NCBI RefSeq assembly: GCF_002288525.1
Contig: NZ_CP023068.1
Coordinates: 124,001-188,000, forward strand
Source of the DNA: Sinorhizobium sojae CCBAU 05684
Lineage (GTDB): Bacteria; Pseudomonadota; Alphaproteobacteria; Rhizobiales; Rhizobiaceae
DNA length: 64,000 bases
Direction: 5' to 3'
In this document: in pieces, positions 32,650 through 47,384 of the stretch
Layout: every line of letters begins with the position of its first letter
Numbering within the stretch: position 1 is the first letter of the stretch
Notes under the pieces: generated by a model
What the model saw: the letters and a program-made list of their open reading frames with translations, nothing else
Told to the model about the DNA's origin: nothing
Database searches by the model: none
Program-made: the position numbers and the translations under genes

Positions 32650-33870
32650 ATGACACTCGGCGCTATCGAAGCCATGAGGGAGGACGTTGCCGTCATCGGC
32701 GGGAGCCTTAAAGACCGCGTGGCGCAACTAGTCCCTCTCATCCGGCAGCGGGCATTGGAAACCGAGCGCATGCGGCGGGTGCCGGCGGCCAACATCGCGG
32801 CCCTGCGTGAGATCGGTTATTTCGACGCGGTAAAGCCTGCGGCCTATGGCGGTTCGCCGCGGCCTTTCGCTGAACTCGTCGACGCGAATATCGAGCTTTC
32901 CGCCGCCTGCGCCTCCACCGGCTGGGTCGCGGGCCTTCTCTCGGCGCATCAATGGCTGCTCGCCATGTTCCCGAAGCAGGCGCAGGAAGATGTCTGGGGC
33001 GAAAATCCCGACGCGCTGCTCTGCGGCTCCTATGCGCCCATCTCCATGGCCGAGCGCGTCGAAGGCGGTTATCGCCTCAACGGGCGCTGGTCCTTCGCCA
33101 GCGGCTGCGACAATGCGCAATGGTCGCTGTGCGCGGCCATCCTTCCCCCTTATGGCGAGGAAAAGCCGGTTCCCGCCTTTCTGCTCGTTCCGGCGCACGA
33201 ATACACGATTGACGACACCTGGAATGTGGTGGGTCTCGCCGGCACGGGCTCCAAGACCCTGGTGCCCGACAATGTGGTGGTGCCGGAGCATCGCGTTCTG
33301 GCATTCCCGCAGGCCACCAGCGGGAGGACGCCAGGCGCCAAAGTCTACCCGGGTCAGGCCTTGTTCAACATGCCTCTGCTGACAGGCATTCCCTCCTGCC
33401 TGGCCTCCGCCGCCGTGGGTGCCGCCAAGGGCGCGCTCGAAAGCTATGCAGCCTCGATCTCGACACGCGTCACGCGCGGCGCGGTGGCCGGCGGCAACAA
33501 CCGCATGGCCGAGTTTCCCACCATTCAGCTTCGCGTCGCGGAAGCGGCGGCAAGCGTCGATGCCGCACGCGAAATCCTCCTACGCGATGTCACCAATGCC
33601 GAGGCATTGGCCGGGTCAGGGAATGCGTTCACGGTGGAGGACCGCCTCGTCAGTCGCCGTGGCCAGGCCTTCGCGGTGAGCCTCGCGTTGCGCGCCGTCG
33701 AAGCGCTCAATGCCTCGACCGGCGGCACAGGACTCGGTCTGGAAAATCCCGTCCAGCGCGCCTGGCGGGACGCAAATGCGGTCGGCCGACACATCAGCAT
33801 GAACTGGGACGCCGTCGGAACTATGGTCGGCCAGCACATGCTCGGTCTCGAACCCAAGGGTCAGTACTGA
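32650..33870 (+). CDS. graA: Resorcinol hydroxylase, oxygenase component
   Basis: A 406-residue flavin-dependent monooxygenase of the acyl-CoA-dehydrogenase-like (HpaA/HsaA) fold. It begins after AGGAGGGAACCC at the ATG 32650. The N-terminal helical domain is followed by the substrate-binding block GRWSFASGCDNAQW and the C-terminal LNASTGGTGLGLENPVQRAW. It should oxidise resorcinol to hydroxyquinol with the GraD reductase. Length is close to that of MTP-10005 GraA (about 409 residues as recalled). Substrate is inferred from the decarboxylase and the dioxygenase that follow. Confidence 0.85.
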   Translation: MTLGAIEAMREDVAVIGGSLKDRVAQLVPLIRQRALETERMRRVPAANIAALREIGYFDAVKPAAYGGSPRPFAELVDANIELSAACASTGWVAGLLSAHQWLLAMFPKQAQEDVWGENPDALLCGSYAPISMAERVEGGYRLNGRWSFASGCDNAQWSLCAAILPPYGEEKPVPAFLLVPAHEYTIDDTWNVVGLAGTGSKTLVPDNVVVPEHRVLAFPQATSGRTPGAKVYPGQALFNMPLLTGIPSCLASAAVGAAKGALESYAASISTRVTRGAVAGGNNRMAEFPTIQLRVAEAAASVDAAREILLRDVTNAEALAGSGNAFTVEDRLVSRRGQAFAVSLALRAVEALNASTGGTGLGLENPVQRAWRDANAVGRHISMNWDAVGTMVGQHMLGLEPKGQY

Positions 33871-33902
33871 CCCGCGCTCGAACAAACCTCAAGGGAGGAA
33901 AC

Positions 33903-34877
33903 ATGCAAGGCAAGATTGCGCTCGAGGAGCATTTCGCTATTCGCGAAACGTTGATGGATTCAGCCGGGTTCGTGCCGGGGGACTATTGGACGGAGTTGCA
34001 AGGCAGGCTGCTCGATATCCAGGACACGCGCCTGAGGCTCATGGACCGGCATGGGATCGACATGATGGTCCTGTCGCTCAACGCGCCCGCCGTTCAGGCA
34101 ATCCCCGATACGGGCAAGGCAGTCGAAATCTCGCGCCGCGCGAACGATGCCCTGGCCGAGGAGTGCGCAAAGCGCCCTAGCAGGTTCCGCGCCTTTGCCG
34201 CCCTGCCGCTGCAGGACCCGGAAGCGGCATCGCGCGAGCTGGAGCGCTGCGTCAAGGATCTCGGCTTCGTCGGCGCGCTGGTCAACGGCTTCAGCCAGCG
34301 CAACGACACCAAAGACCTGCTTTACTACGATCTGCCGCTATATCGTAGCTTCTGGGCCACGGTCGCCGCGCTCGATGTGCCTTTCTACCTGCATCCGCGC
34401 AATCCCCTGCCAGAGGATAGCCGCATCTATGAAGGCCATCCCTGGCTGATGGGCCCCACCTGGGCCTTCGCGCAGGAAACGGCGGTTCACGCGCTCCGGC
34501 TGATGGGTTCGGGTCTCTTCGACGAGCATCCCGGCCTGCAGATCATCCTCGGCCACATGGGCGAGGGGCTGCCCTACATGATGTGGCGGATCGACAACCG
34601 CAATGCATGGGTGAAGGTGCCGCCGAAATATCCGGCGAGGCGGCGCATCGCGGACTATTTCAACGAGAACTTCTACATCACTACCTCTGGGAACTTCCGC
34701 ACCCAGACGCTGATTGACGCCATGCTGGAGATCGGCTCCGGCCGCATTCTATTCTCCACCGATTGGCCGTTCGAGAACATCGATCACGCCGCAGACTGGT
34801 TCGACAGCACCACCATTTCGGAGGCGGATCGCACCAAGATCGGCCGTACGAACGCAAAGGCGCTCTTCAACCTGTAG
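33903..34877 (+). CDS. graF: Gamma-resorcylate decarboxylase
   Basis: A 324-residue amidohydrolase-fold decarboxylase that converts 2,6-dihydroxybenzoate to resorcinol without added cofactor. The zinc ligands of the characterised rhizobial enzyme are all in register: Glu8 and His10 (ALEEH), His164 (FYLHPRNPLP), His218 (LGHMGEG) and Asp287 (FSTDWPFENIDHA). Near-identity to the recalled MTP-10005 enzyme supports the specific name. The reaction is reversible. It sits 32 bases after graA with AGGGAGG as ribosome-binding site. Confidence 0.93.
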   Translation: MQGKIALEEHFAIRETLMDSAGFVPGDYWTELQGRLLDIQDTRLRLMDRHGIDMMVLSLNAPAVQAIPDTGKAVEISRRANDALAEECAKRPSRFRAFAALPLQDPEAASRELERCVKDLGFVGALVNGFSQRNDTKDLLYYDLPLYRSFWATVAALDVPFYLHPRNPLPEDSRIYEGHPWLMGPTWAFAQETAVHALRLMGSGLFDEHPGLQIILGHMGEGLPYMMWRIDNRNAWVKVPPKYPARRRIADYFNENFYITTSGNFRTQTLIDAMLEIGSGRILFSTDWPFENIDHAADWFDSTTISEADRTKIGRTNAKALFNL

Positions 34878-34887
34878 GAGGCGGACC

Positions 34888-35772
34888 ATGACGGACGGCA
34901 AATATCCGCTCTTCTCAGAGGAGAACTCTGCGGAGGTGGTCAATGCTCGCATGGGCGCGGATATCGACCCGCGCCTGCGCGAAGTGATGGGCGCCATCGT
35001 GCGCCATCTTCATGCGGCGGTGAAGGAAGTGGAACCGACCCACGAGGAGTGGCTGACGGCAATCGAGATCCTGACCAAGACCGGCCACATGTGCACGGAC
35101 TGGCGGCAGGAGTTCATCCTGCTGTCGGACGTGCTTGGCGTGTCCATGCTGGTCGATGCGATCAACCATCGCCGCCCGTCCGGCGCGACGGAAAACACGA
35201 TCCTCGGACCGTTTTACGTGCCCGAGGCGCCCCGCTACGAGCGCGGCACCAATATCTGTCTCGATGGAAAGGGCGAGCCGCTGTTGGTGGGCGGCTTCGT
35301 TCGCGATACAGAGGGGAAACCGATCGAGGGCGCGCTGATCGACATCTGGCAGACCAATGACGACGGCTTTTACGACGTGCAACAGAAGGGCGTGCAGCCG
35401 GACTGGAACCTGCGCGGCGTCTTCACTACGGACGAACAAGGCAGCTATCGCTTCCGCTCGGTCAAGCCGCGCTATTATCCCATCCCGGATGACGGGCCGG
35501 TGGGCAAACTGCTCGGCCAGCTCGGGCGGCATCCCAACCGCGCGGCGCATATCCATTTCATCGTCACCGCGCCGGGTTACGATCCGCTCATCACCCACAT
35601 CTTCCCGCCGGACTGCGAATTTATCGATCAGGACGCGGTGTTCGGCGTAAAGGAGAGCCTGATCGCGGATTTCCGGCGGATCGAGGAGCCCGGAACGGGC
35701 GAAGATGCGGGTCTCGCAGCACCCTACTGGAGCGTGAATTGGGACTTCGTTCTAATACGATCGGGTGCCTGA
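34888..35772 (+). CDS. graB: Hydroxyquinol 1,2-dioxygenase
   Basis: A 294-residue Fe(III) intradiol dioxygenase that opens hydroxyquinol to maleylacetate. Iron ligands line up as Tyr162 (DGFYDV), Tyr197 (RYYPIP), His221 and His223 (AAHIHF). An N-terminal helical dimerisation domain comes first. The ATG at 34888 follows TAGGAGG. The gene is placed before the maleylacetate reductase, whereas in the recalled MTP-10005 operon the two are in the opposite order. Confidence 0.92.
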   Translation: MTDGKYPLFSEENSAEVVNARMGADIDPRLREVMGAIVRHLHAAVKEVEPTHEEWLTAIEILTKTGHMCTDWRQEFILLSDVLGVSMLVDAINHRRPSGATENTILGPFYVPEAPRYERGTNICLDGKGEPLLVGGFVRDTEGKPIEGALIDIWQTNDDGFYDVQQKGVQPDWNLRGVFTTDEQGSYRFRSVKPRYYPIPDDGPVGKLLGQLGRHPNRAAHIHFIVTAPGYDPLITHIFPPDCEFIDQDAVFGVKESLIADFRRIEEPGTGEDAGLAAPYWSVNWDFVLIRSGA

Positions 35773-35773
35773 C

Positions 35774-36829
35774 ATGCAGCCATTCACATATACCGGGCTT
35801 CCCACGAGGGTCATTTTCGGCCACGGCACGCTCGAAAAGCTTGGCCCCGAGGTGGATCGCCTCGGCATCTCGCGCGCGCTGGTACTTTCAACGCCTCATC
35901 AGCGGGACATGGCGGAGGATACCGCGCAGCGCCTCGGTTCGCTTGCTGCCGGCATCTTTTCGGAAGCGGCCATGCACACGCCCGTCGATGTCACCGAGCG
36001 GGCGATGCGCGAGGTCGAGCGCGGCGGAGCGGACGGCATTGTTGCCATAGGCGGCGGGTCGACGACTGGACTCGGCAAGGCGATTGCGCTGCGCACCGAT
36101 CTGCCGCAGCTGGTGGTGCCGACTACCTATGCTGGCTCGGAAATGACGCCAATCCTTGGCCAGACGGAAAATGGCCGCAAGACCACGCTGCGCGACCCGA
36201 AGGTGCTTCCCGAAACGGTCATCTATGACGTCTCGCTGACGCTCGGGCTGCCGGTGAAGCTCTCCGCCGTCAGCGGTCTCAATGCCATAGCCCATGCAGT
36301 GGAGGCGCTTTACGCGCAGGACCGCAACCCTGTGATCGACCTAATGGCCGAGGAAGGCATCGCAGCGCTCGCCCGTTCGCTCCCCGCCACCATAACCAAG
36401 CCGGACGATCTCGATGCGCGGTCGGATGCGCTTTATGGCGCATGGCTCTGCGGCATCTGCCTCGGCTCTGTCGGCATGGCGCTGCATCACAAGCTCTGCC
36501 ACACGCTGGGGGGCATGTTCAATCTTCCCCACGCGGAAACGCACGCCGTCATCCTGCCCCATGCGATGCGCTACAACATGCAGGCCGCACCAATAGCCGC
36601 TGGAAGGGTAGCGCGCGCGCTCGGGGCAGGGGACGCGGCAAAGGGTTTGCAGAACCTCGCGCGCCGCGTTGGCGCACCGCTTTCGCTCAAGGAGATCGGC
36701 ATGACCGCGGAAGGCATCGATCCTGCGGTGGCCCAGGCTATGGCAAACCCATACTGGAACCCCGAGCCGCTGATCGAGGCCCGCATCCGTGACCTTCTGG
36801 AGCGCGCGTTCCATGGCTCCGATGTTTGA
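35774..36829 (+). CDS. graC: Maleylacetate reductase
   Basis: A 351-residue iron-type alcohol dehydrogenase family enzyme that reduces maleylacetate to 3-oxoadipate. It has the NAD(P)-binding GGGSTTGLGKAIA (about residue 94), PTTYAGSEMTPI and the C-terminal HHKLCHTLGG and NLPHAETHAVILPH blocks that mark maleylacetate reductases. The ATG at 35774 lies one base after the graB stop. It ends the resorcylate operon; beta-ketoadipate enzymes are presumably encoded elsewhere. Confidence 0.92.
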   Translation: MQPFTYTGLPTRVIFGHGTLEKLGPEVDRLGISRALVLSTPHQRDMAEDTAQRLGSLAAGIFSEAAMHTPVDVTERAMREVERGGADGIVAIGGGSTTGLGKAIALRTDLPQLVVPTTYAGSEMTPILGQTENGRKTTLRDPKVLPETVIYDVSLTLGLPVKLSAVSGLNAIAHAVEALYAQDRNPVIDLMAEEGIAALARSLPATITKPDDLDARSDALYGAWLCGICLGSVGMALHHKLCHTLGGMFNLPHAETHAVILPHAMRYNMQAAPIAAGRVARALGAGDAAKGLQNLARRVGAPLSLKEIGMTAEGIDPAVAQAMANPYWNPEPLIEARIRDLLERAFHGSDV

Positions 36830-36863: not shown

Positions 36864-37670
36864 CTACTTCGCGTCGGCCATTGTCATGGGGGCGAAGGAA
36901 AGATCCTCGCAAAAGGCAATGAGGCGCTTGACCGCCTCCGATCCCGGCTGAACCACAGAGGGGTCGGTGCCGATCAAGGTCACCACCGCCTGCGCTTCTC
37001 CCTGCCAGTCGAGGATCGGGGCCGCGATGGCAACAAGGCCGGGAATGAACTTGCCCTCCACCGAGGCGTAGCCCTTGGCGCGGATGGTCTCAACCAGCTT
37101 GTCGATATCCCGGTCGGCTGGCACATCCGGGGCGATGGCCGGGTTCTTGCGGGCGTGACGCAACTCAGCGTCGCGGATTGCCTGAAGCGGCGCCTGGGGT
37201 GCCCAGGCGAGGAAGGCGCGGCCGGTCGCGGAGTTTAGCAGGGGCAGCGTGGTGCCGAGGCCCATGGAGGTGACCGTGGGCGAGGCGGCGCGCTCCCAGC
37301 GGATCACCGTCGCGCCCTGATTTCCCCAGACGGAGAGCAGCGTGGTCAGACCCGACTCGGTGCACAGATCGGGCAAGGCGTCAGAGGCACGGTTCACAAA
37401 GTCATGCCGGGCAAGGGCCGAAAGGCCGAGCGTCACCGCGCCGGGACCGAGGTCGTATTTGCCGGAGCGCCCGGCCTGCTCCACAAGGCTCGCATGCTGG
37501 AAGGAAGCGAGGTAGCGGTGCACCTTGCTGGGCGGCATGCGGCAATCGCGAGCCAACTCCGACAGCGACACCGGACCGCGGCGTTCCATCATGGCGACGA
37601 GCAGCCGCAATGCCGCGTCGAGCGACTGGATGCCGCCCGTCTGTCCCTCGCCCTTATCGTTCTTGGCCAT
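36864..37670 (-). CDS. IclR-family regulator of the aryl-CoA / gentisate cluster
   Basis: A 268-residue IclR regulator from the ATG at 37668-37670. The N-terminal winged helix (SLSELARDCRMPPSKVHRYL) is followed by the ligand-binding domain (about residues 95-260; SVEGKFIPGLVAIAAPI). The start overlaps the end of the thioesterase gene by 17 bases, so the two share a transcript divergent from the fused hydroxylase-ligase gene. It probably senses an aromatic acid or its CoA ester and controls that cluster; that is inferred from position. Confidence 0.85.
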   Translation of the reverse strand: MAKNDKGEGQTGGIQSLDAALRLLVAMMERRGPVSLSELARDCRMPPSKVHRYLASFQHASLVEQAGRSGKYDLGPGAVTLGLSALARHDFVNRASDALPDLCTESGLTTLLSVWGNQGATVIRWERAASPTVTSMGLGTTLPLLNSATGRAFLAWAPQAPLQAIRDAELRHARKNPAIAPDVPADRDIDKLVETIRAKGYASVEGKFIPGLVAIAAPILDWQGEAQAVVTLIGTDPSVVQPGSEAVKRLIAFCEDLSFAPMTMADAK

Positions 37671-38073
37671 TGGCTTCCACCATGCTGCGTAATGCCTCGA
37701 TTTCCGCAGCGACCATACCGGTATTGCCGTGTTTGAACAGCGCTCGCACCTCGCTGCCCACAACCGTGATGTCGCCGCCGACGCGCCCCTCGTAGGAAAG
37801 GCGCAGGGTTTTGCGGCCCCATTCTTCGAGGGAAAGGGTCAGGATCAGGCTGTCTCCATCGCGCATCGGCCGAAGGAACCGGGCGCTCGCCTCCAACAGC
37901 CCAATGCCGATGGCTCCCAACCTTTCGCAAAGCGCACCATGACCGCCGAACTGCCTGAGCCAGTCGTGGAAGGTGCGGTCGAACCATGCGTAGACGTGTG
38001 GATAAAAGACGATGCCAGCGGGATCACAATCGCCAAAACTGACCGGATAATCAAGGCTGTGTACCGTTATCAT
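37654..38073 (-). CDS. Hotdog-fold aryl-CoA thioesterase
   Basis: A 139-residue protein of the 4-hydroxybenzoyl-CoA thioesterase (YbgC-like) family. The active-site motif is FGDCDPAGIVFYPHVYAWFD near the N-terminus. The ATG at 38071-38073 has GGAG 8 bases upstream; another in-frame ATG lies at 38085. Placed divergent to the fused FAD hydroxylase / CoA ligase and near gentisate dioxygenase, it most likely releases gentisate from gentisyl-CoA. The exact acyl-CoA is inferred. Confidence 0.85.
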   Translation of the reverse strand: MITVHSLDYPVSFGDCDPAGIVFYPHVYAWFDRTFHDWLRQFGGHGALCERLGAIGIGLLEASARFLRPMRDGDSLILTLSLEEWGRKTLRLSYEGRVGGDITVVGSEVRALFKHGNTGMVAAEIEALRSMVEANGQER

Positions 38074-38158: not shown

Positions 38159-40903
38159 ATGGTTAGGCTGTCCAGCATCGAGATTTTGGGCGGGGGCCCG
38201 GCGGGGCTTTATGCGGCAATCCTGCTGCGACGTATCCTGCCGGAGGCGCGGGTGCGTGTGACCGAGCAAAATCCAAAGGGCGCGACCTTCGGCTTCGGTG
38301 TGGTCTTCTCCGATCAGGCGCTGGATTTCCTCAAGGCCGACGATCCCGAGACCCATGATCTTGTGACGCCGCTTATGGAGCGCTGGCGGAACATGACGCT
38401 GAATCTGCCCGCCGGGCAGGTTATCCTCGACGGTGTCGGATTTGCCTCCGTCGGCCGGCTGGAGTTAATCGAGATCCTGCGCAAGCGGGCCGAAGCGGTT
38501 GGCGTCGAAATGCGCTTCTCGCACACGGTGACCGCGCTTGACGGATTGCAGGCGGATCTCATCATCGGAGCGGATGGGCTGAATTCGCTCGTGCGCCGCT
38601 CGCGGGAGGCGGAATTCGCGCCGGTGCTTGAGCACTTCAGCAACCGTTTCGCCTGGTTCGGCACGGAACGCCCCTTCGACACGCTGACCCAGACCTTTGT
38701 GGAAACCGGGAAGGGGGCGCTCAACGCGCATCATTATCGATTCGCCTCGAACCGCAGCACCTTCATCGTCGAATGTGACGAGGCCACCTTCGGCGCATAC
38801 GGCTTTGCCGATATGGACGAGACGCAGAGCGCGCGGCTTTGCGAAACGATCTTTGCCGACGTTCTGGAAGGCGCGCCGCTGATCACTAACAAGTCCATGT
38901 GGCGGCAGTTTCCGCGGCTATGGTGCCAAAATTGGGTTGCGGGGCGGCATGTGCTTTTGGGCGACGCTGCCCATACCGCACATTTCTCGATTGGTTCCGG
39001 CACGCGGCTGGCAATGGAGGATGCCATCGCACTCGTCCGGTCGCTTGGCAAGCATGATGATGTCGATGAAGCGCTGGCCGCATACCAGGCCGAGCGGCAG
39101 CCAGTCGCCAGGAAGATTGTCGACGCGGCCAACACCTCTGCGAACTGGTATGAGAGCTTCGCGGCGAAGATGGCCCTGCCGCCGGTCGATTTCGCCTTCG
39201 ATTACCTGACGCGTTCCGGCCGTATGGACATGGAGCGTCTGCGCAAGATCGCGCCGGGCTTCATGGCCCGCTACGAGGCCGAGAAGGCGGCGGAAGGCAG
39301 CGCGCTTGCCGACCCGGTGAAGGACGACGCGCCCGGGGCCACCGAGATCGGCTTCGAGAAGGCGGCGCACCCGAACTGCTCCATTATCCTGTGGGACAAT
39401 CTCGCCCGCAATCCGGACAAGCCTGCGGTGATTGGGCCTGCCGGCACGCTGACCTATGCCGAAATGGTGGCCGAGGCGGCGCGGTGGGGCAATGCCTTGA
39501 TCGCCGCCGGGCTGAAGCGGGGAGAGCGCATACCGTTCTTCCTCGATGATACGCCGGCCTATCCAGCAGCCTTCTTCGGGGCAGTACGCGCCGGCTTTGT
39601 GCCCGTTCTGCTGAATATCCAGACCACGCCCGACGTCCTGAATTTCTTCCTTCAGGACACCGGAGCGCGGGTTGCGCTATGTGAGGCGTCCCTGGCGGAC
39701 CGTTTCGGCCCGGAGACGCTGAAAGGCACCGCACTGGAGCGGGTTGTGATCGCGAATGGCACGGCTGATGGGGCAGGGCGCATCGCCGCCGCTGACTTCC
39801 TCGCAGGCCAACCGCAGACGCTCGACTGTGCCGACACCGGTGCGGACGACATGGCGTTCTGGATGTATTCCTCCGGCTCGACCGGGCGACCCAAGGGCAT
39901 TGTCCACCTGCATCACGACATGGCCTATACGCAGGCGTCCTTCGGTGAGCATGTCCTGAAGCTGCGTCCCGACGACATCTGCTTCTCGGTTCCGAAGATC
40001 TTCTTCGCCTATGGCTTTGGGAATGCGATCACTTTTCCCTTCTCGATCGGCGCGACAACGCTATTGCTGCCGGGCCAGCCGCGCCCCAACGCTGTGCTGG
40101 ACGCTATTGAGGGCTTTCGGCCCACGGTGCTCTTTGGCCTTCCGACACTTTATACCGCACTGGCGCGGGCCGAGGGCGTGGCGGCGCGCGACTTGAGTTG
40201 CCTGCGCCAGTCCATGTCGGCGGCTGAGATCCTGTCGCAGGAAATCTATGACTCCTGGAAGGCGTTGACGGGGCACGGCCCGACCGAGGGGCTGGGTTCG
40301 ACCGAGATGCTGCACATTTATCTGTCGAACAGCCTCGACGACCACCGCATCGGTTCGGCGGGCGCGCGCGTGCCGGGCTATGAGGTGCGTCTCGAAACGC
40401 CTGAGGGCAAGCCGGCAGGTCCCGGCGAAGAAGGCGTGATGTTCGTGCGCGGCCATTCCTCGGCACCTTGTTACTGGAACCGGCCGGACAAGACACGCGA
40501 TACAATGCGCGGCGACTGGCTCTACACAGGCGACCGCTTCATCGAGAAAGACGGCTGCTATTACTTTCAGGGACGCGCCGACGAACTGATCAAGGTGTCG
40601 GGCCAGTGGGTGTGGCCGCTGGAGGTGGAACGCTGCTTGAACGAGCATCCGGACGTGCACGAATGCGCCGTCATGGCGCATCAAATGGCCGACCGCCGGA
40701 TGACGCTGCGAGCCGTGGTGCGGCTTCGCGACGGCAAGGCGGGGAGCGAAGAACAGAGCGAAGCGCTGCGGGCCTACGTCAAGTCGCGCCTCCAGCCATA
40801 CAAATATCCGCGTATCGTCGAATATGCCGCCGATCTGCCCAAGACCGGAACCGGCAAGATAGATCGGCAGGCACTGCTGCGGGTGAAAGAGGAAAGCTTA
40901 TGA
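38159..40903 (+). CDS. Fusion of FAD-dependent aryl-CoA hydroxylase and aryl-CoA ligase
   Basis: A 914-residue two-enzyme chain. Residues 1-380 form an FAD monooxygenase of the salicylyl-CoA 5-hydroxylase / 2-aminobenzoyl-CoA monooxygenase type (GGGPAG at 11-16, GADGLNS at 137-143, GDAAHT at 268-273). Residues 400-914 form a benzoate-CoA-ligase-type adenylating enzyme (YSSGSTGRPKG at 570-580, YTGDRF, and the C-terminal lysine at 900 in GTGKIDRQ). The ATG at 38159 follows GGGAGGA. I infer that salicylate is activated to salicylyl-CoA and hydroxylated to gentisyl-CoA on the same polypeptide, with the neighbouring thioesterase freeing gentisate. Known salicylyl-CoA systems use separate proteins, and other fusions of this FAD domain carry an old-yellow-enzyme domain instead. 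There is no stop or frameshift between the halves. Confidence 0.88.
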   Translation: MVRLSSIEILGGGPAGLYAAILLRRILPEARVRVTEQNPKGATFGFGVVFSDQALDFLKADDPETHDLVTPLMERWRNMTLNLPAGQVILDGVGFASVGRLELIEILRKRAEAVGVEMRFSHTVTALDGLQADLIIGADGLNSLVRRSREAEFAPVLEHFSNRFAWFGTERPFDTLTQTFVETGKGALNAHHYRFASNRSTFIVECDEATFGAYGFADMDETQSARLCETIFADVLEGAPLITNKSMWRQFPRLWCQNWVAGRHVLLGDAAHTAHFSIGSGTRLAMEDAIALVRSLGKHDDVDEALAAYQAERQPVARKIVDAANTSANWYESFAAKMALPPVDFAFDYLTRSGRMDMERLRKIAPGFMARYEAEKAAEGSALADPVKDDAPGATEIGFEKAAHPNCSIILWDNLARNPDKPAVIGPAGTLTYAEMVAEAARWGNALIAAGLKRGERIPFFLDDTPAYPAAFFGAVRAGFVPVLLNIQTTPDVLNFFLQDTGARVALCEASLADRFGPETLKGTALERVVIANGTADGAGRIAAADFLAGQPQTLDCADTGADDMAFWMYSSGSTGRPKGIVHLHHDMAYTQASFGEHVLKLRPDDICFSVPKIFFAYGFGNAITFPFSIGATTLLLPGQPRPNAVLDAIEGFRPTVLFGLPTLYTALARAEGVAARDLSCLRQSMSAAEILSQEIYDSWKALTGHGPTEGLGSTEMLHIYLSNSLDDHRIGSAGARVPGYEVRLETPEGKPAGPGEEGVMFVRGHSSAPCYWNRPDKTRDTMRGDWLYTGDRFIEKDGCYYFQGRADELIKVSGQWVWPLEVERCLNEHPDVHECAVMAHQMADRRMTLRAVVRLRDGKAGSEEQSEALRAYVKSRLQPYKYPRIVEYAADLPKTGTGKIDRQALLRVKEESL

Positions 40904-41023: not shown

Positions 41024-41983
41024 ATGAACATCAGCAGATATTTGTTGGCAGCCGGCTTGGCGCTCGGGCTCACCGTGCCCGCCACCGCGCAGGTCAGTTC
41101 CATCGCGACCCCGCCTCAGGGATCGGTCTGGAACACCATGTCGTCCGTCATCGCCGGTCAGGCGCGCGAAAGCAGCAATCTGCGCATGGTGGTGCAGCCT
41201 TACGGCGGCAATGCACAGATGATGCAGGCCCTGAACGAAGGTATCGCGGAGTTCGCACTTAACGATGTCAACGATGCCATTTCGGCGGTCGCGGGCAGCG
41301 GCGAATATAGCGCTGCCTTGCCCAATCTGCGTGCCGTTGCGCGGATCAACCCGTTCCCGGTCGGGCTTTATGTGAAGGAAAGCTCCGGGATGACCAAGGT
41401 CGCTGACCTCGCGGGCAAGAGCGTGCCCTCGGGCTGGGATGGTTTTCCCATCGCGCGGTCCCACATCACGGCCATTCTTGCCGCCGGCGGATTGACCTGG
41501 GATGACGTCAAACAGGTTCCGGTACCGGAGCTGATCCGCGGCTCGGATGACATGGCTTCCGGCCGGGTCGACAGCGCCTTCTTCGCCGTCGGCGGACCGA
41601 AGGTGGCCGAGATAGACGCCTCGGTCGGCGGCGTCCGGTTTTTGGCCGTCGAAGCCAATGACGAGAACCTTGCGAAGATTCAGGCGGTGCGCCCGGCTTT
41701 CTATTTCTCCGAGATTGCCCCCGCCCCGGCCCGGGTCGGGGTCGAGGAGCCAACGATGTTCGTGACCTGGGATAACGTCCTCCTTGCGGGCAGCCACGTG
41801 CCGGACGAGCAGGTGAAATCATTCCTCGCGGTCATCTTTGACAACGTCGAAGCCATCGGCACGGCCTATCCCCCACTCAGGGCGCTCAATGTAGAGACTG
41901 CATACAAGAGCTATCCGGGATTGGAATACCATCCCGGCGCAGTCGCCTTCTTCGAAGAGCGCGGCATCAAGCAGTCCAAATAG
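41024..41983 (+). CDS. TAXI-family TRAP transporter solute-binding protein
   Basis: A 319-residue exported binding protein. It begins with a cleavable signal peptide (MNISRYLLAAGLALGLTVPA, cut near TAQ), then TPPQGSVWNTMSSVIAG, the TAXI-family ligand region. The ATG at 41024 follows CGGGAGGAAT. It pairs with the fused TRAP permease that follows. Position between the hydroxylase-ligase and the gentisate genes suggests uptake of the aromatic acid substrate, but the ligand has not been shown. Confidence 0.85.
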   Translation: MNISRYLLAAGLALGLTVPATAQVSSIATPPQGSVWNTMSSVIAGQARESSNLRMVVQPYGGNAQMMQALNEGIAEFALNDVNDAISAVAGSGEYSAALPNLRAVARINPFPVGLYVKESSGMTKVADLAGKSVPSGWDGFPIARSHITAILAAGGLTWDDVKQVPVPELIRGSDDMASGRVDSAFFAVGGPKVAEIDASVGGVRFLAVEANDENLAKIQAVRPAFYFSEIAPAPARVGVEEPTMFVTWDNVLLAGSHVPDEQVKSFLAVIFDNVEAIGTAYPPLRALNVETAYKSYPGLEYHPGAVAFFEERGIKQSK

Positions 41984-42045: not shown

Positions 42046-44016
42046 GTGACCGACAACATCTCGCAAATCGCAGCCGGAACCGAAGTGCCGCAAGATGTGA
42101 GCGGGCCGCCATGGGTTCGTCACCTGGTCCATGCGCTCGCCGGCACCCTGACCCTGGTTGCTGTTGCGCAGGCCGCTGACCTCGCGTCCAGGCTTGGCTA
42201 CTCCTATTATACCGAGCAGTTCCTGGCGGTGATCCTAGGCTTAAGCCTTGCGCTCGTCTTCCTTCTCCGCAGGGCTCGATCTTCGGACGAGGCAAAGGGT
42301 TCGCCGCCGATCCCCGATCTGATCCTCGCCGCGCTCGGCCTCGGCCTTTCCTTCTATGTAGCCTGGGCCTACCCAGCCCTCCTCTCCAGCGCCATGATGC
42401 TGCCGTGGGATGCGCTCGTCGGCGGCGGCTTGCTGTTTCTCCTTGTGCTCGAAGGTTTGCGCCGGACGGTGGGTATGACGCTCGTCATCGTCGTGCTGGC
42501 GATCGTACTCTACGGGCTTATCGGCCATATGGTGCCGGGCATCCTGCAAACGCGCGAAGTTCAGGCGCCGCGCATGGCGGTCTATCTCGCCTTCGATCCG
42601 AACGGTCTGTTCGGGATAACCCTTAACGTCGCGGCGACGGTAGTGGTCGCCTTCGTCCTCTTCGGCCAGATTCTGTTGCGCTCGGGCGGAGCCGATTTCT
42701 TCAACGATATCGCACTCGCCAGCATGGGCCACAGGCGCGGCGGCTCCGCGAAGATCTCCATCGTCGCATCGGCTCTGTTCGGTTCGATTTCCGGCGTGGT
42801 GGTGTCGAACATCGTCGCGACTGGTGTGGTGACCATCCGGCTGATGATCAATTCGGGTTTCCGCCGTACCACGGCGGCGGCTGTCGAAGCGGTCGCTTCG
42901 ACCGGCGGTCAGATCGCGCCGCCGGTCATGGGCGCGGTGGCCTTCCTGATGGCCGACATCCTGCAGAAGCCCTATTCGGAAATCGTCGTGGCAGCGATCG
43001 TGCCGGCGCTGCTCTACTATGTCGCTCTCTATGTGCAGGCCGACCTTCAGGCAGCCAAGCACAATATCAGGCCGGTAGAGGGGGAGGTCATTCCTCCCGT
43101 GGGCCGCGTTTTGTCGCGTGGATGGGTTTTCGCGCTGCCCTTTGCGGCGATTGTGGCCGCGCTGTTCTGGTTCAACCAGCGGGCCGAGACCGCGGCTCTG
43201 TGGGGCGGCGGTGCGGCCCTGCTGATCGGGCTTTTCATGGGCTACGGCAAAGCCCGCATGTCCCTGCGCGACCTCTGGAGTGCCGCCGTAGAAAGCGGCC
43301 AGTCCATCGTCGACATCATCATGATCTCGGCTGCTGCGGGCTTTATCATCGGTGTGCTGAATGTGACCGGTCTCGGATTTGCCGTAACCTTCGCGCTGGT
43401 TGATCTGGGGCAGGGCAATTTGTTCTTGCTGCTGCTCATTTCGGCTGCGGTCTGCCTCGTCCTGGGCATGGGCATGCCGACCGTGGGCGTTTACCTGCTG
43501 CTCGCCGTGCTCGTCGCGCCCTCGCTGATCGAGACGGGCGTGGAGCCCATCGCTGCACACCTCTTCATCTTCTATCTCGGCATGATGTCGATGGTGACGC
43601 CGCCCATCGGGATCGGCGCCTTCTTCGCGGCGTCGATCGCGAAGGCTCCCCCGCTCGCGACGGCGTTCGAGTCGATGCGCTTCGGCTGGACCGCTTATAT
43701 TGTCCCGTTCCTGTTCGTCTTCTCGCCCGCCCTGCTCCTGATGGGCGATCCGGTCGAAATCGTGGTCGCGGTCGCCACGGCGATCCTGGGCGTCTACGCG
43801 ATCTCAAGCGCCTTCATCGGCTGGCTGCATGGCCCGGCCGGCATTTTCCGCCGCATCCTGACAGGGCTCGCGGGCGCGGCGTTGTTGCTGCCACCGGGAA
43901 TTCTCGGAGCAGCAACACTCTGGATCAACGGGGCGGGCTTTGCCGCGCTGGCTATGCTCTGGCTGCTGGGCCGGGACAGGCAAAGCCAGGTTTCCGTTCC
44001 CCATCCCGCGCAATGA
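42046..44016 (+). CDS. TRAP transporter fused permease (small and large membrane subunits)
   Basis: A 656-residue polytopic membrane protein in which the small DctQ-like and large DctM-like subunits are one chain, the usual form in TAXI-type TRAP systems. The large domain has GSISGVVVSNIVATG, STGGQIAPPVMGAVAFLMAD and LGMGMPTVGVYLLLAVLVAP. The start is the GTG at 42046 with GGAAGG upstream. With the preceding binding protein it forms a sodium- or proton-driven high-affinity importer. Confidence 0.88.
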   Translation: MTDNISQIAAGTEVPQDVSGPPWVRHLVHALAGTLTLVAVAQAADLASRLGYSYYTEQFLAVILGLSLALVFLLRRARSSDEAKGSPPIPDLILAALGLGLSFYVAWAYPALLSSAMMLPWDALVGGGLLFLLVLEGLRRTVGMTLVIVVLAIVLYGLIGHMVPGILQTREVQAPRMAVYLAFDPNGLFGITLNVAATVVVAFVLFGQILLRSGGADFFNDIALASMGHRRGGSAKISIVASALFGSISGVVVSNIVATGVVTIRLMINSGFRRTTAAAVEAVASTGGQIAPPVMGAVAFLMADILQKPYSEIVVAAIVPALLYYVALYVQADLQAAKHNIRPVEGEVIPPVGRVLSRGWVFALPFAAIVAALFWFNQRAETAALWGGGAALLIGLFMGYGKARMSLRDLWSAAVESGQSIVDIIMISAAAGFIIGVLNVTGLGFAVTFALVDLGQGNLFLLLLISAAVCLVLGMGMPTVGVYLLLAVLVAPSLIETGVEPIAAHLFIFYLGMMSMVTPPIGIGAFFAASIAKAPPLATAFESMRFGWTAYIVPFLFVFSPALLLMGDPVEIVVAVATAILGVYAISSAFIGWLHGPAGIFRRILTGLAGAALLLPPGILGAATLWINGAGFAALAMLWLLGRDRQSQVSVPHPAQ

Positions 44017-44074: not shown

Positions 44075-44770
44075 ATGTCCTACGTCTTTTCTCCCCCACC
44101 GGTCGCGACTGTGGCAGTTGCCGATAGCCCTGACAGGTTTCCGGTGCGGCGCATCTTCTGTGTCGGGAGGAACTACGCCGCCCATGCCCGCGAAATGGGC
44201 AAGGACCCGGAGCGCGAATTGCCGTTCTTCTTCAGCAAGCCTGCAGACGCAGTCGTGGATGCGGGCGAAACCGTCGCCTACCCGCCGCAGACGGAGAACT
44301 TCCATTACGAGGCGGAGCTGGTGGTCGCCATCGGCACGGGCGGGCGCGATATTCCCGAGGCGGACGCTCTGACGCATGTCTGGGGCTACGCCATCGGCAA
44401 CGACCTGACCCGGCGCGACCTGCAGCTTCAAGCCCGAGACAAAGGGCGTCCGTGGGATTTCGGCAAGGCCTTCGACCGCTCCGCCGTCATCGGTCCGGTT
44501 CATCCGGTGGCGAAGGTCGGGTATCCGGAAAAGGGCTCGATCCGGCTCACCGTGAACGGCGAGACGAAGCAGGACGCGGATCTGAACGAGCTGATCTGGT
44601 CAGTGCCCGAGGTCATCTCGTTCTTGTCGCATTCCGTCACGCTTGCGCCGGGCGATCTGATCATGACCGGCACTCCGGCAGGCGTGGGAGCGCTGGTGCC
44701 AGGCGACGTGTGCGTCGTGAGCATCGAGGGGCTGGGCGAGATCAGCACCCGGATCGGCCCCAGGGCGTAA
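44075..44770 (+). CDS. Fumarylpyruvate hydrolase (FAH family)
   Basis: A 231-residue member of the fumarylacetoacetate hydrolase family, expected to split fumarylpyruvate into fumarate and pyruvate as the last step of the gentisate route (NagK-like). Metal-site residues are in HYEAELVVAIG; other marks are FCVGRNYAAHAREMG and MTGTPAGVGALVPGD. The ATG at 44075 is preceded by AAGGAG. It lies directly before the isomerase gene, two bases apart. Confidence 0.88.
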   Translation: MSYVFSPPPVATVAVADSPDRFPVRRIFCVGRNYAAHAREMGKDPERELPFFFSKPADAVVDAGETVAYPPQTENFHYEAELVVAIGTGGRDIPEADALTHVWGYAIGNDLTRRDLQLQARDKGRPWDFGKAFDRSAVIGPVHPVAKVGYPEKGSIRLTVNGETKQDADLNELIWSVPEVISFLSHSVTLAPGDLIMTGTPAGVGALVPGDVCVVSIEGLGEISTRIGPRA

Positions 44771-44772
44771 CA

Positions 44773-45420
44773 ATGACCCTGACGCTGCACAATTTCTTCC
44801 GCTCCTCGACGTCCACGCGGCTGCGCGCTGCGCTGAACCTCAAGGGCCTGGACTATGATTACGTGCCTTATGTCCTGCGGCGGGGAGACACGCGCACGCC
44901 GGAATACCTGGCGATGAACCCGGCCGGCCTCGTGCCCGCGCTGGAGGGCCCGGATGGCACGATCATGACCCAATCGCTGGCGATCATCGAATGGCTGGAG
45001 GAAAACCATCCTGAGCCTGCCCTTCTGCCAACCGATTCCGATGGCAGGGTGCGGGTCCGGGCGCTGGCGCTTATGATCGCGTGCGAGGTCCATCCCCTCA
45101 ACAATCTCCGGGTGCTCGCCTATCTGGCAGACTGCTTCGGCGCTGATGAGGCGGCACAGAAGGAATGGTTCACTCACTGGGTGGAAACCACCTTCGAGGC
45201 GCTGGAAAAGATGCTGTCGTCGGATCCGAGGACCGGCGTATTCTGCCATGGCGACGAGCCGGGGCTCGCCGACCTTTGTCTCTACGCACAAGTCTGGAAC
45301 AATCGCCGCTTCGACATCCGTACCTCGGCATGGCCGACGATCGATCGCATCTTCAAACGGCTGGATCAGATCCCTGCCTTCAGGGATGCCGCCCCGCCAA
45401 ACCAGCCGGACGCTGCCTAA
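44773..45420 (+). CDS. Maleylpyruvate isomerase, glutathione S-transferase zeta type
   Basis: A 215-residue protein of the zeta-class GST family (NagL-like). The N-terminal thioredoxin-fold domain contains the glutathione-binding FRSSTSTRLRAALNLKG, and NPAGLVPAL and QSLAIIEWLEE follow. It isomerises maleylpyruvate to fumarylpyruvate using glutathione, the thiol rhizobia make. It begins two bases after the preceding hydrolase gene and is followed by gentisate dioxygenase. Confidence 0.9.
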   Translation: MTLTLHNFFRSSTSTRLRAALNLKGLDYDYVPYVLRRGDTRTPEYLAMNPAGLVPALEGPDGTIMTQSLAIIEWLEENHPEPALLPTDSDGRVRVRALALMIACEVHPLNNLRVLAYLADCFGADEAAQKEWFTHWVETTFEALEKMLSSDPRTGVFCHGDEPGLADLCLYAQVWNNRRFDIRTSAWPTIDRIFKRLDQIPAFRDAAPPNQPDAA

Positions 45421-45450: not shown

Positions 45451-46551
45451 GTGCTTGAGAAGACAGAAAACGCGCCGGCCCATGCGATGCAGCCTGAGGA
45501 GACGCCGGAACTGCGCGCGCTCTACAAGGGGTTCCAAGAGCAGTGCCTGCTTCCGCTGTGGACCCAACTCGGCGACCTGATGCCGATCCATCCCAAGCCG
45601 CGGGCCGTCCCTCATGTCTGGAAGTGGGCGGACCTGCTGCCGCTGGCGCAACGCTCCGGCGAGCTCGTCCCTGTCGGGCGGGGCGGCGAGCGGCGAGCCA
45701 TCGGCCTGGCCAATCCGGGGCTGGGCGGCCATGCCTATGTCAGCCCGACGCTCTGGGCGGCGATCCAGTATCTCGGCCCGAGGGAGACCGCTCCCGAGCA
45801 CCGCCATGCGCAGAATGCCTTCCGCTTCGTGGTCGAGGGGGAAGGCGTCTGGACCGTGGTCAACGGCGATCCGGTACGCATGAGCCGCGGCGATCTGCTC
45901 CTGACCCCGGGCTGGCATTTCCACGGTCATCATAATGATACCGATAAGCCCATGGCCTGGATCGACGGGCTCGACATCCCCTTTGCTCAGCACAACGACG
46001 TCGGCTTTTTCGAGTTCGGCTCGGACCGGGTAACCGACTATGCCACCCCGCGCTTTTCACGGGGTGAGCGGCTCTGGTGCCATCCGGGCCTGCGGCCCTT
46101 GTCCGGGCTTCGCGACACCGTCAGCTCGCCCATCGGTGCCTACCGCTGGGAGCACACGGACCGCGCTTTGACCGAGCAGCTGCTGCTGGAGGAAGAAGGG
46201 CAGCCCGCGACGGTGGAGCAGGGCCACGCGGCCATCCGCTACGTCAATCCCACCAACGGTGGCGACGTGATGCCGACGATCCGCTGTGAGTTCCATCGTC
46301 TGCGTGCGGGCACAACGACCCCGAAGCGGCGGGAGGTAGGCTCGTCCGTCTTCCAGGTCTTCGAGGGAAAGGGCGCAGTCGTCATCGACGGGGTGACGCA
46401 TAAGCTCGACATCGGCGACTTGTTCGTGATCCCGTCCTGGGTGCCGTGGTCGCTCCAGGCCGAAACCCAGTTCGATCTGTTCCGCTTCTCCGACGCGCCG
46501 ATCATGGAGCGGCTGAACTTTGCGCGCGCCCATGTCGAGGCGGGCGATTGA
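45451..46551 (+). CDS. Gentisate 1,2-dioxygenase
   Basis: A 366-residue double-cupin ring-cleaving enzyme that opens gentisate to maleylpyruvate with Fe(II). The first cupin holds the iron ligands in PEHRHAQNAFRFVVEG (His117, His119) and WHFHGHHN (His156-His161 region). The C-terminal cupin (VFQVFEGKGAVVIDG) lacks some of these. The start is the GTG at 45451 with AGGAGG upstream; an overlapping ATG at 45446 is in another frame. It confirms that the cluster drains into gentisate, and ends overlapping the next start. Confidence 0.92.
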   Translation: MLEKTENAPAHAMQPEETPELRALYKGFQEQCLLPLWTQLGDLMPIHPKPRAVPHVWKWADLLPLAQRSGELVPVGRGGERRAIGLANPGLGGHAYVSPTLWAAIQYLGPRETAPEHRHAQNAFRFVVEGEGVWTVVNGDPVRMSRGDLLLTPGWHFHGHHNDTDKPMAWIDGLDIPFAQHNDVGFFEFGSDRVTDYATPRFSRGERLWCHPGLRPLSGLRDTVSSPIGAYRWEHTDRALTEQLLLEEEGQPATVEQGHAAIRYVNPTNGGDVMPTIRCEFHRLRAGTTTPKRREVGSSVFQVFEGKGAVVIDGVTHKLDIGDLFVIPSWVPWSLQAETQFDLFRFSDAPIMERLNFARAHVEAGD

Positions 46552-47384
46552 TGAGCGAGAGCATCGAGGAGGCGCGCGCCGCCCTTCGGGCCCGGCAGGG
46601 CAGCGGCGCCCGGTACGATGCGCCCGCCGCACCCGCCCGCCAACTCGATTGGGCGCGGCGCGGCACGGCCTATTTCGCGCGCCTCCTCAACGAGCTGTCG
46701 GACCGCGATCTCGACGCACCATCGGCGCTGCCGGGGCTGTCGCGGCGTCACATCATTGCGCATATCGGCTATCATGCCCGGCTTATAAGCGAAATGGTCG
46801 CCTGGGCGCGGACGGGGCAGCTGGGGCCCTTCCCAGAGGCGGCACAGGTATCGACGAGCGATGTCGTGCTCGGAGCGAGCCTGCCGTCGCGCGCTCTCCG
46901 CCATCTCTTCGATCATTCCGGAGTCCACCTCAATGTGGAATGGCGCGACTTGAGCGATGCCGGCTGGGACGCCTCGGTCGAAGACGCCGCGGGCCGGCGT
47001 GTAACGCTGCGTGATACCCCGGAAATCCGGGCCCGCGCACTATGGCTCCACGCGGTGGATTTGGCGGCGGGCGGTCGGTTTGCCGACATGCCACCGGACT
47101 TCATTGATCCCCTGATCCGGTACTATGCGGCAGCCTATACCGGCCGCCCTTTCTCGCTTTCCTTCTCCGACCGGCCGGAACCGCTCGTGGTCGGCAACGC
47201 GCCCGAAATCGCCGTGACGGGAAGAGCGGCGGATATCGCTCAATGGCTCTGTGGCCGGGGTGTACGCGGACTGCAGGTGGCCGGCGGCGTGTTACCCGAA
47301 GAGCCTCGCTCAACCCTCGGATTAATCGGACCATTGCCGGTGGAACTACAGATATCTTCACCCACCGAATCGGGATCCAGTTGA
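46551..47384 (+). CDS. Maleylpyruvate isomerase family protein, DinB/MDMPI type
   Basis: A 277-residue protein with the N-terminal four-helix DinB-like (MDMPI_N) fold, shown by LSRRHIIAHIGYHARLISEM with candidate metal-binding histidines, and an MDMPI C-terminal domain (about 180-260). Its ATG overlaps the gentisate dioxygenase stop by one base, so it is coupled. This family's characterised members use mycothiol, which rhizobia are not known to make, so the thiol used or the real reaction may differ. It would duplicate the GST-type isomerase in the same operon. Confidence 0.82.
   Translation: MSESIEEARAALRARQGSGARYDAPAAPARQLDWARRGTAYFARLLNELSDRDLDAPSALPGLSRRHIIAHIGYHARLISEMVAWARTGQLGPFPEAAQVSTSDVVLGASLPSRALRHLFDHSGVHLNVEWRDLSDAGWDASVEDAAGRRVTLRDTPEIRARALWLHAVDLAAGGRFADMPPDFIDPLIRYYAAAYTGRPFSLSFSDRPEPLVVGNAPEIAVTGRAADIAQWLCGRGVRGLQVAGGVLPEEPRSTLGLIGPLPVELQISSPTESGSS

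What the first reader, a model, noticed from the sequence alone, without database searches (positions are those of the whole stretch)
38159..40903. Single protein fusing an aryl-CoA FAD hydroxylase to an aryl-CoA ligase
One uninterrupted 914-codon gene carries an FAD monooxygenase related to salicylyl-CoA 5-hydroxylase and a benzoate-CoA-ligase-type domain. Described salicylyl-CoA routes use separate ligase and hydroxylase proteins, and known fusions of this FAD domain have an old-yellow-enzyme partner. Fusing activation to hydroxylation would channel the CoA ester. I am not aware of a characterised example.
Basis: partly seen in the sequence, partly recalled or inferred. Interest (0 to 1): 0.8.

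Follow-up and report, generated by a model that had tools for sequence, protein, structure and literature searches.

The report
Fused salicylate-CoA ligase and hydroxylase
One bacterial gene encodes two enzymes joined end to end that are predicted to turn salicylate, a plant defence hormone, into gentisyl-CoA on the way to using it as food, and a known pathway with the same two enzymes as separate proteins likely arose when such a joined gene came apart.

Summary
Window 38159-40903 (+) is one 914-codon gene: an FAD aryl-CoA hydroxylase (residues 1 to about 378), about 8 junction residues, then a complete benzoate-CoA-ligase-type enzyme. Each half has a close counterpart in adjacent separate genes named cehH (salicylyl-CoA hydroxylase, 70.5% identical) and cehG (salicylyl-CoA ligase, 73.4%) in plasmid records, in the window's layout: IclR regulator, gentisyl-CoA thioesterase, hydroxylase/ligase, FAH hydrolase, isomerase, gentisate dioxygenase. 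Most likely reaction (inferred): salicylate to salicylyl-CoA to gentisyl-CoA on one polypeptide. The fusion is common among close relatives: 52 of 80 classified named loci carry it and one more has both forms. Where named, it is mostly called 'benzoate-CoA ligase family protein'. Ten searches of an open-licence paper library showed no characterised fused member. Trees of either half, rooted separately, place mostly split pairs at the base, then a fused clade with the cehH/cehG-annotated split pairs nested inside, so the known two-protein form looks like a secondary break-up. The cluster's dioxygenase has Ala where the salicylate-cleaving dioxygenase of Pseudaminobacter salicylatoxidans has Gly106, which argues against direct salicylate cleavage. 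Channelling is untested. Verdict: new variant of a known kind.

The parts
38159..40903 (+). Fused gene: FAD aryl-CoA hydroxylase (CehH-like) + aryl-CoA ligase (CehG-like), 914 aa
   Evidence: Shine-Dalgarno-like GGGAGGAC before the ATG
38159..39292 (+). Hydroxylase half, residues 1-378; GxGxxG (G11, G13, G16), D139-G140 and G268-D269
   Evidence: Pfam FAD_binding_3; these residues are the same in 31 of 31 aligned rows; 70.5% identical over 380 aa to annotated cehH; nearest solved structure VioD 8gqr
39293..39316 (+). Short junction, about residues 379-386 (limits approximate)
   Evidence: Between the hydroxylase end ARYEAEKAA and the ligase start motif DPVxxxxPGAxEIGF; model pLDDT under 50 at residues 380-382
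39317..40900 (+). Ligase half, residues 387-914; P-loop SSGSTGRPKG present, T715-E716, D792, R806 and K900
   Evidence: TIGR02262, 478 bits; 73.4% identical over 526 aa to annotated cehG; 4eat/4wv3; T715, E716, D792, R806, K900 the same in 30 of 30 aligned rows, P-loop with scattered changes
37654..38073 (-). 4HBT-type hotdog thioesterase, likely gentisyl-CoA thioesterase (CehI-like); start 38073 or 38085
   Evidence: Pfam 4HBT; 50.4% identical over 127 aa to annotated cehI; 4-hydroxybenzoyl-CoA thioesterases 5wh9/1bvq
36864..37670 (-). IclR-family regulator
   Evidence: a relative within 2.5 kb upstream in 41 of 49 fused loci with enough flank
41024..41983 (+). TAXI-type TRAP solute-binding protein, perhaps aromatic-acid uptake
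   Evidence: TIGR02122; start with GGGAGG; kept in only 9 of 44 fused loci with enough flank
42046..44016 (+). TRAP fused permease
   Evidence: TIGR02123; kept in 9 of 44
44075..44770 (+). FAH-family hydrolase, likely fumarylpyruvate hydrolase
   Evidence: start candidate
44773..45420 (+). MaiA-type isomerase, likely maleylpyruvate isomerase
   Evidence: TIGR01262, 254 bits over the cut-off of 171
45451..46551 (+). Gentisate 1,2-dioxygenase, close relative of the P. salicylatoxidans gentisate/salicylate dioxygenase but with Ala at the 106 position
   Evidence: Best solved matches 3nst/2phd; 83% to the L076 dioxygenase; residue 104 here = 106 of 2phd. TIGR02272 gentisate_1_2 matches at 271 bits, under its cut-off of 442
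46551..47384 (+). Mycothiol maleylpyruvate isomerase N-terminal (MDMPI_N) family protein
   Evidence: PF11716

Best explanation
This is a single 914-residue protein with an FAD hydroxylase half and an aryl-CoA ligase half that likely converts salicylate with ATP and CoA to salicylyl-CoA and then hydroxylates it to gentisyl-CoA. The ligase half would adenylate salicylate and load it on CoA; the FAD half would use NAD(P)H and O2 to hydroxylate C5 of the thioester. The divergent hotdog thioesterase would release gentisate, and the downstream dioxygenase, isomerase and FAH hydrolase would take it to fumarate and pyruvate; the TAXI-TRAP transporter may import the acid and the IclR protein probably regulates the cluster. 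The protein equals a CehH and a CehG joined in frame with almost no added linker. The fused form likely arose from an ancestral pair of adjacent genes; the cehH/cehG-annotated separate genes look like a later break-up. Shown: gene structure, domains, conserved motifs, cluster, relatives and tree shape. Inferred: substrate, reactions, channelling and direction of evolution.
For: Both halves match adjacent genes annotated cehH and cehG (70.5% over 380 aa, 73.4% over 526 aa), and the thioesterase matches cehI (50.4% over 127 aa). [quoted passage not shown] X9) was seen as one sentence plus a reference title in PMC11335346. Gentisate genes follow in the same direction. Of 44 fused loci with enough downstream sequence 23 keep a gentisate dioxygenase of at least 75% identity and 24 the FAH hydrolase; of 49 with enough upstream sequence 41 keep the IclR gene and 26 the thioesterase. 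FAD-motif residues are the same in 31 of 31 and T715, E716, D792, R806, K900 in 30 of 30 aligned rows. The dioxygenase of the window, and of 34 of 35 fetched clusters with one of at least 60% identity, has Ala, not Gly, at the 106 position. No salicylate 1-monooxygenase in this genome passes the family cut-off. Trees rooted on two different outgroups agree on the nesting; AU tests against the 52 main fused rows being a clade apart from the split ones: p 4e-7 (both halves), 0.004 (hydroxylase), 1e-4 (ligase); careful 46-row tree.
Against: No biochemical data exist here. The cehH/cehG names come from the annotation of the records, and I could not read the X9 paper or compare its sequences. 3- or 4-hydroxybenzoyl-CoA could also give gentisyl-CoA. 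Only 23 of 44 fused loci with enough flank keep the high-identity dioxygenase within 11 kb, 19 of 44 the isomerase and 9 of 44 the TRAP genes, so some fused members may feed another route. The fission step rests on parsimony: 4 changes against 13 independent fusions on the free tree, on which some forks are weak; counted on the starred forks alone the alternative needs about six fusions in the main clade. Several inner forks of the ligase tree have support of 81-93 only. The AU groups were named after a tree had been seen. One aligned relative, P0169 (602 aa), is a truncated fusion with an altered P-loop region.
Confidence: 0.78

Rival explanations
1. The protein activates and hydroxylates another acid, such as 3-hydroxybenzoate (6-hydroxylation) or 4-hydroxybenzoate (1-hydroxylation with side-chain shift), also giving gentisyl-CoA.
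For: All three routes end in gentisyl-CoA and would use the same thioesterase and gentisate genes (pathways recalled); the residues A617, Y618 and H719, which align with BadA A227, Y228 and H333, are shared with benzoate-CoA ligase and are not salicylate-specific. Their role is recalled, apart from the H333A/I334A mutant title.
Against: The nearest named relatives are salicylyl-CoA enzymes; the 3-hydroxybenzoate-CoA ligase model HbdA scores 362 against a cut-off of 1000.
Confidence: 0.12
2. Salicylate is cleaved directly by the neighbouring dioxygenase, a close relative of the P. salicylatoxidans salicylate 1,2-dioxygenase, and the fusion serves another acid.
For: The window dioxygenase is 83% identical to the L076 enzyme, which differs from PDB 2phd at one of 365 aligned residues; that enzyme cleaves both gentisate and salicylate (PMC11264262, passages).
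Against: The window enzyme has Ala at the position of Gly106, an active-site residue (PMC10306065, passages); [quoted passage not shown] The thioesterase, isomerase and FAH hydrolase fit gentisate.
Confidence: 0.05
3. The substrate is anthranilate or another ortho-substituted benzoate, as in the 2-aminobenzoyl-CoA pathway.
For: The FAD domain is shared with the OYE fusion family, whose best known member acts on 2-aminobenzoyl-CoA (recalled); anthranilate-CoA ligase 4wv3 is a top fold match.
Against: No OYE partner; the OYE-fusion FAD domains lie across a fully supported branch in the hydroxylase tree; gentisate genes downstream.
Confidence: 0.04
4. The cehH/cehG-annotated split pairs are ancestral and fusion occurred many times independently, with no fission.
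For: Fusion does recur: Bradyrhizobium L059 is fused and sits with split L120/L121. Weak forks lower the number of fusions required.
Against: It needs 13 fusions on the free tree against 4 changes with one fission; several starred forks separate fused lineages stepwise from the split clade.
Confidence: 0.15

Closest known systems
CehG/CehH/CehI CoA-mediated salicylate pathway (Rhizobium sp. X9; names in records of Agrobacterium Sta004 pAt1 and, for cehG and cehH, Salipiger abyssi pPABY2)
   Same: Same two catalytic domains in the same order, same divergent thioesterase and IclR gene, gentisate genes in Sta004; 70.5% and 73.4% identity
   Different: Ligase and hydroxylase are separate proteins there; here they are one polypeptide
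Bifunctional salicylyl-CoA 5-hydroxylase/oxidoreductase family NF006101 (FAD + old-yellow-enzyme)
   Same: Homologous N-terminal FAD hydroxylase half (384 bits over residues 7-379); 36-44% identity to 14 members
   Different: C-terminal partner is a CoA ligase instead of an OYE; family cut-off not met; separated by a fully supported branch
Benzoate-CoA ligase family TIGR02262 (BadA 4eat, AuaEII 4wv3)
   Same: Whole ligase fold and catalytic motifs, cut-off passed
   Different: Those are stand-alone ligases; the cehG-type branch is distinct from the five-row ligase outgroup
Gentisyl-CoA thioesterase BH1999 of Bacillus halodurans (for the neighbouring thioesterase)
   Same: 4HBT-class hotdog enzyme in a gentisate gene cluster (PMC516016, passages)
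   Different: Sequence not compared here; the closest named relative tested is cehI
Gentisate/salicylate 1,2-dioxygenase of P. salicylatoxidans (2phd)
   Same: Close relative of the window dioxygenase; its gene lies in a split hydroxylase/ligase cluster (L076)
   Different: The window copy has Ala at the 106 position

Membership tests
CehGH CoA-mediated salicylate pathway | Aryl-CoA FAD hydroxylase related to CehH | tested here: met
   70.5% over 380 aa to annotated cehH of L089; tree position. The X9 protein itself was not available
CehGH CoA-mediated salicylate pathway | Salicylyl-CoA ligase related to CehG | tested here: met
   73.4% over 526 aa to annotated cehG of L089
CehGH CoA-mediated salicylate pathway | Gentisyl-CoA thioesterase CehI beside it | tested here: met
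   50.4% over 127 aa, same divergent place
CehGH CoA-mediated salicylate pathway | Ligase and hydroxylase as separate proteins | tested here: not met
   One uninterrupted frame
CehGH CoA-mediated salicylate pathway | Catalysis of salicylate to gentisyl-CoA | not testable with these tools
   Needs enzyme assay
NF006101 salicylyl-CoA 5-hydroxylase/oxidoreductase | FAD half followed by an OYE half, score over 1078 | tested here: not met
   384 bits, residues 7-379 only
TIGR02262 benzoate-CoA ligase family | Score over the 375-bit cut-off with catalytic motifs | tested here: met
   478 bits; motif residues
Salicylate 1,2-dioxygenase (for the neighbouring gene) | Gly at position 106 | tested here: not met
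   Ala in the window; of 35 fetched relatives at 60% identity or more 34 have Ala and only L076 has Gly

The most novel reading that the evidence does not exclude
An activating-and-oxygenating enzyme: one chain loads salicylate on CoA and passes the thioester directly from its ligase site to its flavin site, so free salicylyl-CoA hardly appears. This fused machine is the ancestral form in one large alphaproteobacterial clade, from which the two-protein CehH/CehG system later broke apart, possibly through a stage with an extra stand-alone hydroxylase as in Sulfitobacter M05 (L043).
Probability: 0.3. Interest if true: 0.68.

Novelty: new variant of a known kind. Interest (0 to 1): 0.52.

Why it matters
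Salicylate is a plant defence hormone and a hub in aromatic and pesticide degradation. A widespread fused enzyme, mostly labelled only as a 'benzoate-CoA ligase family protein' where it is named, would be missed in surveys of salicylate degradation. The family offers fused, overlapping and separate versions of the same two enzymes, a natural series for testing whether fusion brings channelling and why it is undone. It also gives a genomic setting for the P. salicylatoxidans salicylate dioxygenase, as an outlier with Gly106 among related dioxygenases with Ala.

Tried and rejected
Chance or assembly artefact: rejected. Membership of the OYE fusion family: rejected on the cut-off and the missing OYE half. 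A salicylate 1-monooxygenase as another route in this genome: the best match has 123 bits against a cut-off of 446; other salicylate hydroxylase types were not sought. Promoter and terminator scan: 4 promoter-like sites against 1.9 expected, 7 terminator-like against 7.1, uninformative. A solved chain covering both halves: none among the 60 sequence rows shown of 245, and no target among the 50 fold rows shown is long enough. Domain arrangement from the model: pTM 0.52, so relative placement is not interpretable. Literature: ten searches in an open-licence library; I saw no characterised fusion in the listings (one search listed 20 of 88 papers) or in the passages read; most subscription papers are not held.

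Counts: one search kept the best 80 of 161 relatives found by patterns from the window protein, so the fused share is not an unbiased estimate. One search classified 82 of 83 loci L009-L091 (L086 holds the ligase half only): 53 fused, 29 split. L091 (same record as L058) and L090 (a second Salipiger abyssi strain) were then dropped, leaving 52 fused and 28 split; L092, fetched later and fused by annotation, is not counted. Of the 28, L043 carries both a stand-alone hydroxylase and a complete fused gene. In the trees L043 was entered as split (stand-alone FAD half; ligase half from its fused gene); the careful tree (46 of 92 rows) leaves it out and keeps the nesting. One search placed the L043 fused copy without a starred fork.
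Full report
OBSERVATION. The gene at 38159-40903 (+) encodes 914 residues with no internal stop. Pfam finds FAD_binding_3 (9-323), AMP-binding (413-773) and AMP-binding_C (822-900), all above gathering scores. NCBIfam places the second half in the benzoate-CoA ligase family (478 bits, cut-off 375) and the first half next to salicylyl-CoA 5-hydroxylase/oxidoreductase (384 bits over residues 7-379 only, cut-off 1078). In the PDB the two halves match different proteins: benzoate-CoA ligase 4eat and anthranilate-CoA ligase 4wv3, and VioD. The model has mean pLDDT 84.2 and pTM 0.52; segments under 50 are 380-382 (the junction), 572-578, 808-818, 897-899 and 912-914. Foldseek lists ligases and VioD, and no target among the 50 rows shown is long enough to cover both halves.

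SURROUNDINGS. Divergently on the minus strand lie a 4HBT-type thioesterase and an IclR regulator; downstream in the same direction lie a TAXI-TRAP transporter, an FAH hydrolase, a MaiA-type isomerase, a gentisate 1,2-dioxygenase and an MDMPI_N protein. This set would take gentisyl-CoA to fumarate and pyruvate (function inferred from families).

WHAT IT IS. The plasmid search found records where the same protein aligns to two adjacent genes named cehH (salicylyl-CoA hydroxylase) and cehG (salicylyl-CoA ligase), with the thioesterase and IclR genes in the window's layout; in Agrobacterium Sta004 the thioesterase is named cehI (gentisyl-CoA thioesterase) and the gentisate genes follow. Identity to the window protein: 70.5% over all 380 residues of cehH and 73.4% over 526 residues of cehG; cehI is 50.4% identical to the window thioesterase. 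The pathway was worked out in Rhizobium sp. X9 (Zhou et al. 2021, Mol. Microbiol. 116:783); I saw only its title and one sentence citing it in PMC11335346, as the paper is not held. A related predicted cluster from salicyl-CoA to fumarylpyruvate in Allorhizobium vitis is mentioned in PMC9219206 (one passage).

THE JUNCTION. In split relatives the hydroxylase ends near ...ARYEA and the ligase begins with a short leader and the motif DPVxxxxPGAxEIGF or close to it. In fused proteins the two meet with only about 8 extra residues in the window. Eight split loci have a ligase ATG overlapping the hydroxylase TGA (ATGA), so one inserted or deleted base could join the frames (inference); the other 20 were classed as having a spacer. 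L043 (Sulfitobacter M05), one of those 20, has a stand-alone hydroxylase followed directly by a complete fused gene.

DISTRIBUTION. All 120 listed homologues of the full protein (of 7873 hits; the window's own among them) are fusions. Of 82 classified named loci 53 are fused and 29 split; after removing L090 and L091, 52 and 28. By their record titles these are nearly all Alphaproteobacteria; the two gammaproteobacterial labels (L041, L064) are metagenome bins. The scan reaches close relatives of the window protein, so this share is biased to the fused form. In genome samples, fused genes occur in 8 of 199 (family; 8 more have split pairs), 4 of 150 (order) and 2 of 299 (phylum; 7 more split) genomes, the own genome counted in each, at the E-value limits of those calls. 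Where sources name the fused protein, the name is mostly 'benzoate-CoA ligase family protein', so the hydroxylase half is invisible in annotation.

EVOLUTION. The hydroxylase tree rooted on OYE fusions (107 rows) and the ligase tree rooted on other aryl-CoA ligases (97 rows) agree: mostly split pairs at the base, then a clade of 52 fused and 16 split rows (SH-aLRT 98 and 87), with the 16 split rows, which include the cehH/cehG-annotated L089, nested inside it (97 and 99); several forks in between have 81-93. Holding the 52 fused rows as a clade of their own is rejected: p-AU 4e-7 for both halves together, 0.004 for the hydroxylase, 1e-4 for the ligase; the group was named after a tree had been seen. 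A careful 46-row tree without L043 has starred forks along the path (100/99, 100/98, 98/93, 100/99, 98/90, 97/82, 100/99) and one weaker (88/94). On the free 92-row tree the pattern needs 4 changes, or 13 independent fusions if fission never happens, although some forks on that path are weak. Fusion also recurred: L059 (Bradyrhizobium) sits with split L120/L121 in both trees, and the Amorphus-type pair L056/L135 may be a third case. The two-protein form is therefore most simply a secondary break-up (inference).

SUBSTRATE AND RIVALS. The dioxygenase of the window is a close relative of the P. salicylatoxidans gentisate/salicylate dioxygenase: its counterpart in L076 (strain DSM 6986) differs from PDB 2phd at one of 365 aligned residues and is 83% identical to the window's. 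That enzyme can cleave salicylate directly (PMC11264262, passages), which would bypass the fusion. But the window enzyme has Ala at the position of Gly106, and so have 34 of 35 fetched relatives of at least 60% identity (25 of 25 in fused and 9 of 10 in split loci); only L076 has Gly. [quoted passage not shown] that it loses salicylate activity is recalled from the abstract of that paper. So in this cluster hydroxylation before ring cleavage is expected. The genome has no salicylate 1-monooxygenase over the family cut-off. 3- and 4-hydroxybenzoate remain possible substrates, since they too could give gentisyl-CoA.

LIMITS. All functions are inferred by homology and context. FAD-motif residues are the same in 31 of 31 aligned rows and the main ligase residues in 30 of 30, but the P-loop has scattered changes and one relative (P0169, 602 aa) is truncated. 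Of 44 fused loci with enough downstream flank 23 keep the high-identity gentisate dioxygenase, 24 the FAH hydrolase, 19 the isomerase and 9 the TRAP genes; of 23 split loci 10, 12, 10 and 7. The rest may use a distant gene or another route. The papers searched are open-licence only.

Noticed in passing
L076:13351-14445 and window 45451-46551: The P. salicylatoxidans gentisate/salicylate 1,2-dioxygenase gene lies in a split hydroxylase/ligase cluster, and it alone of 35 compared relatives has Gly at position 106 (the rest Ala), so it looks like a one-residue outlier of a gentisate dioxygenase group.
   Followed up: partly
window 32704-36829: A second aromatic cluster just upstream: HsaA-like flavin monooxygenase, Amidohydro_2 protein, intradiol dioxygenase and iron-type alcohol dehydrogenase; perhaps a resorcylate/hydroxyquinol route (recalled from such clusters, not tested).
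   Followed up: no
L043:9001-12996: Sulfitobacter sp. M05 has a stand-alone hydroxylase (69% to the window) followed directly by a complete fused gene (69%), a possible intermediate between fused and split forms.
   Followed up: partly
L059:9001-11742: A Bradyrhizobium fused gene (57-59% identical) sits with split relatives in both trees, an apparently independent fusion.
   Followed up: partly
L058 and L091: Rhizobium leguminosarum plasmid pRLN3 carries the fused gene with only a short thioesterase match, an unannotated FAH match and no gentisate dioxygenase match in the fetched stretch, as if the cluster were decaying.
   Followed up: no
L034, L044, L088, L118, L124, L125: These loci have a more distant dioxygenase homologue (33-39% to the window's) right after the ligase, perhaps another ring-cleavage specificity.
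   Followed up: no
P0169: A 602-aa protein with the hydroxylase half and a truncated, altered start of the ligase half, probably a decayed fusion.
   Followed up: no
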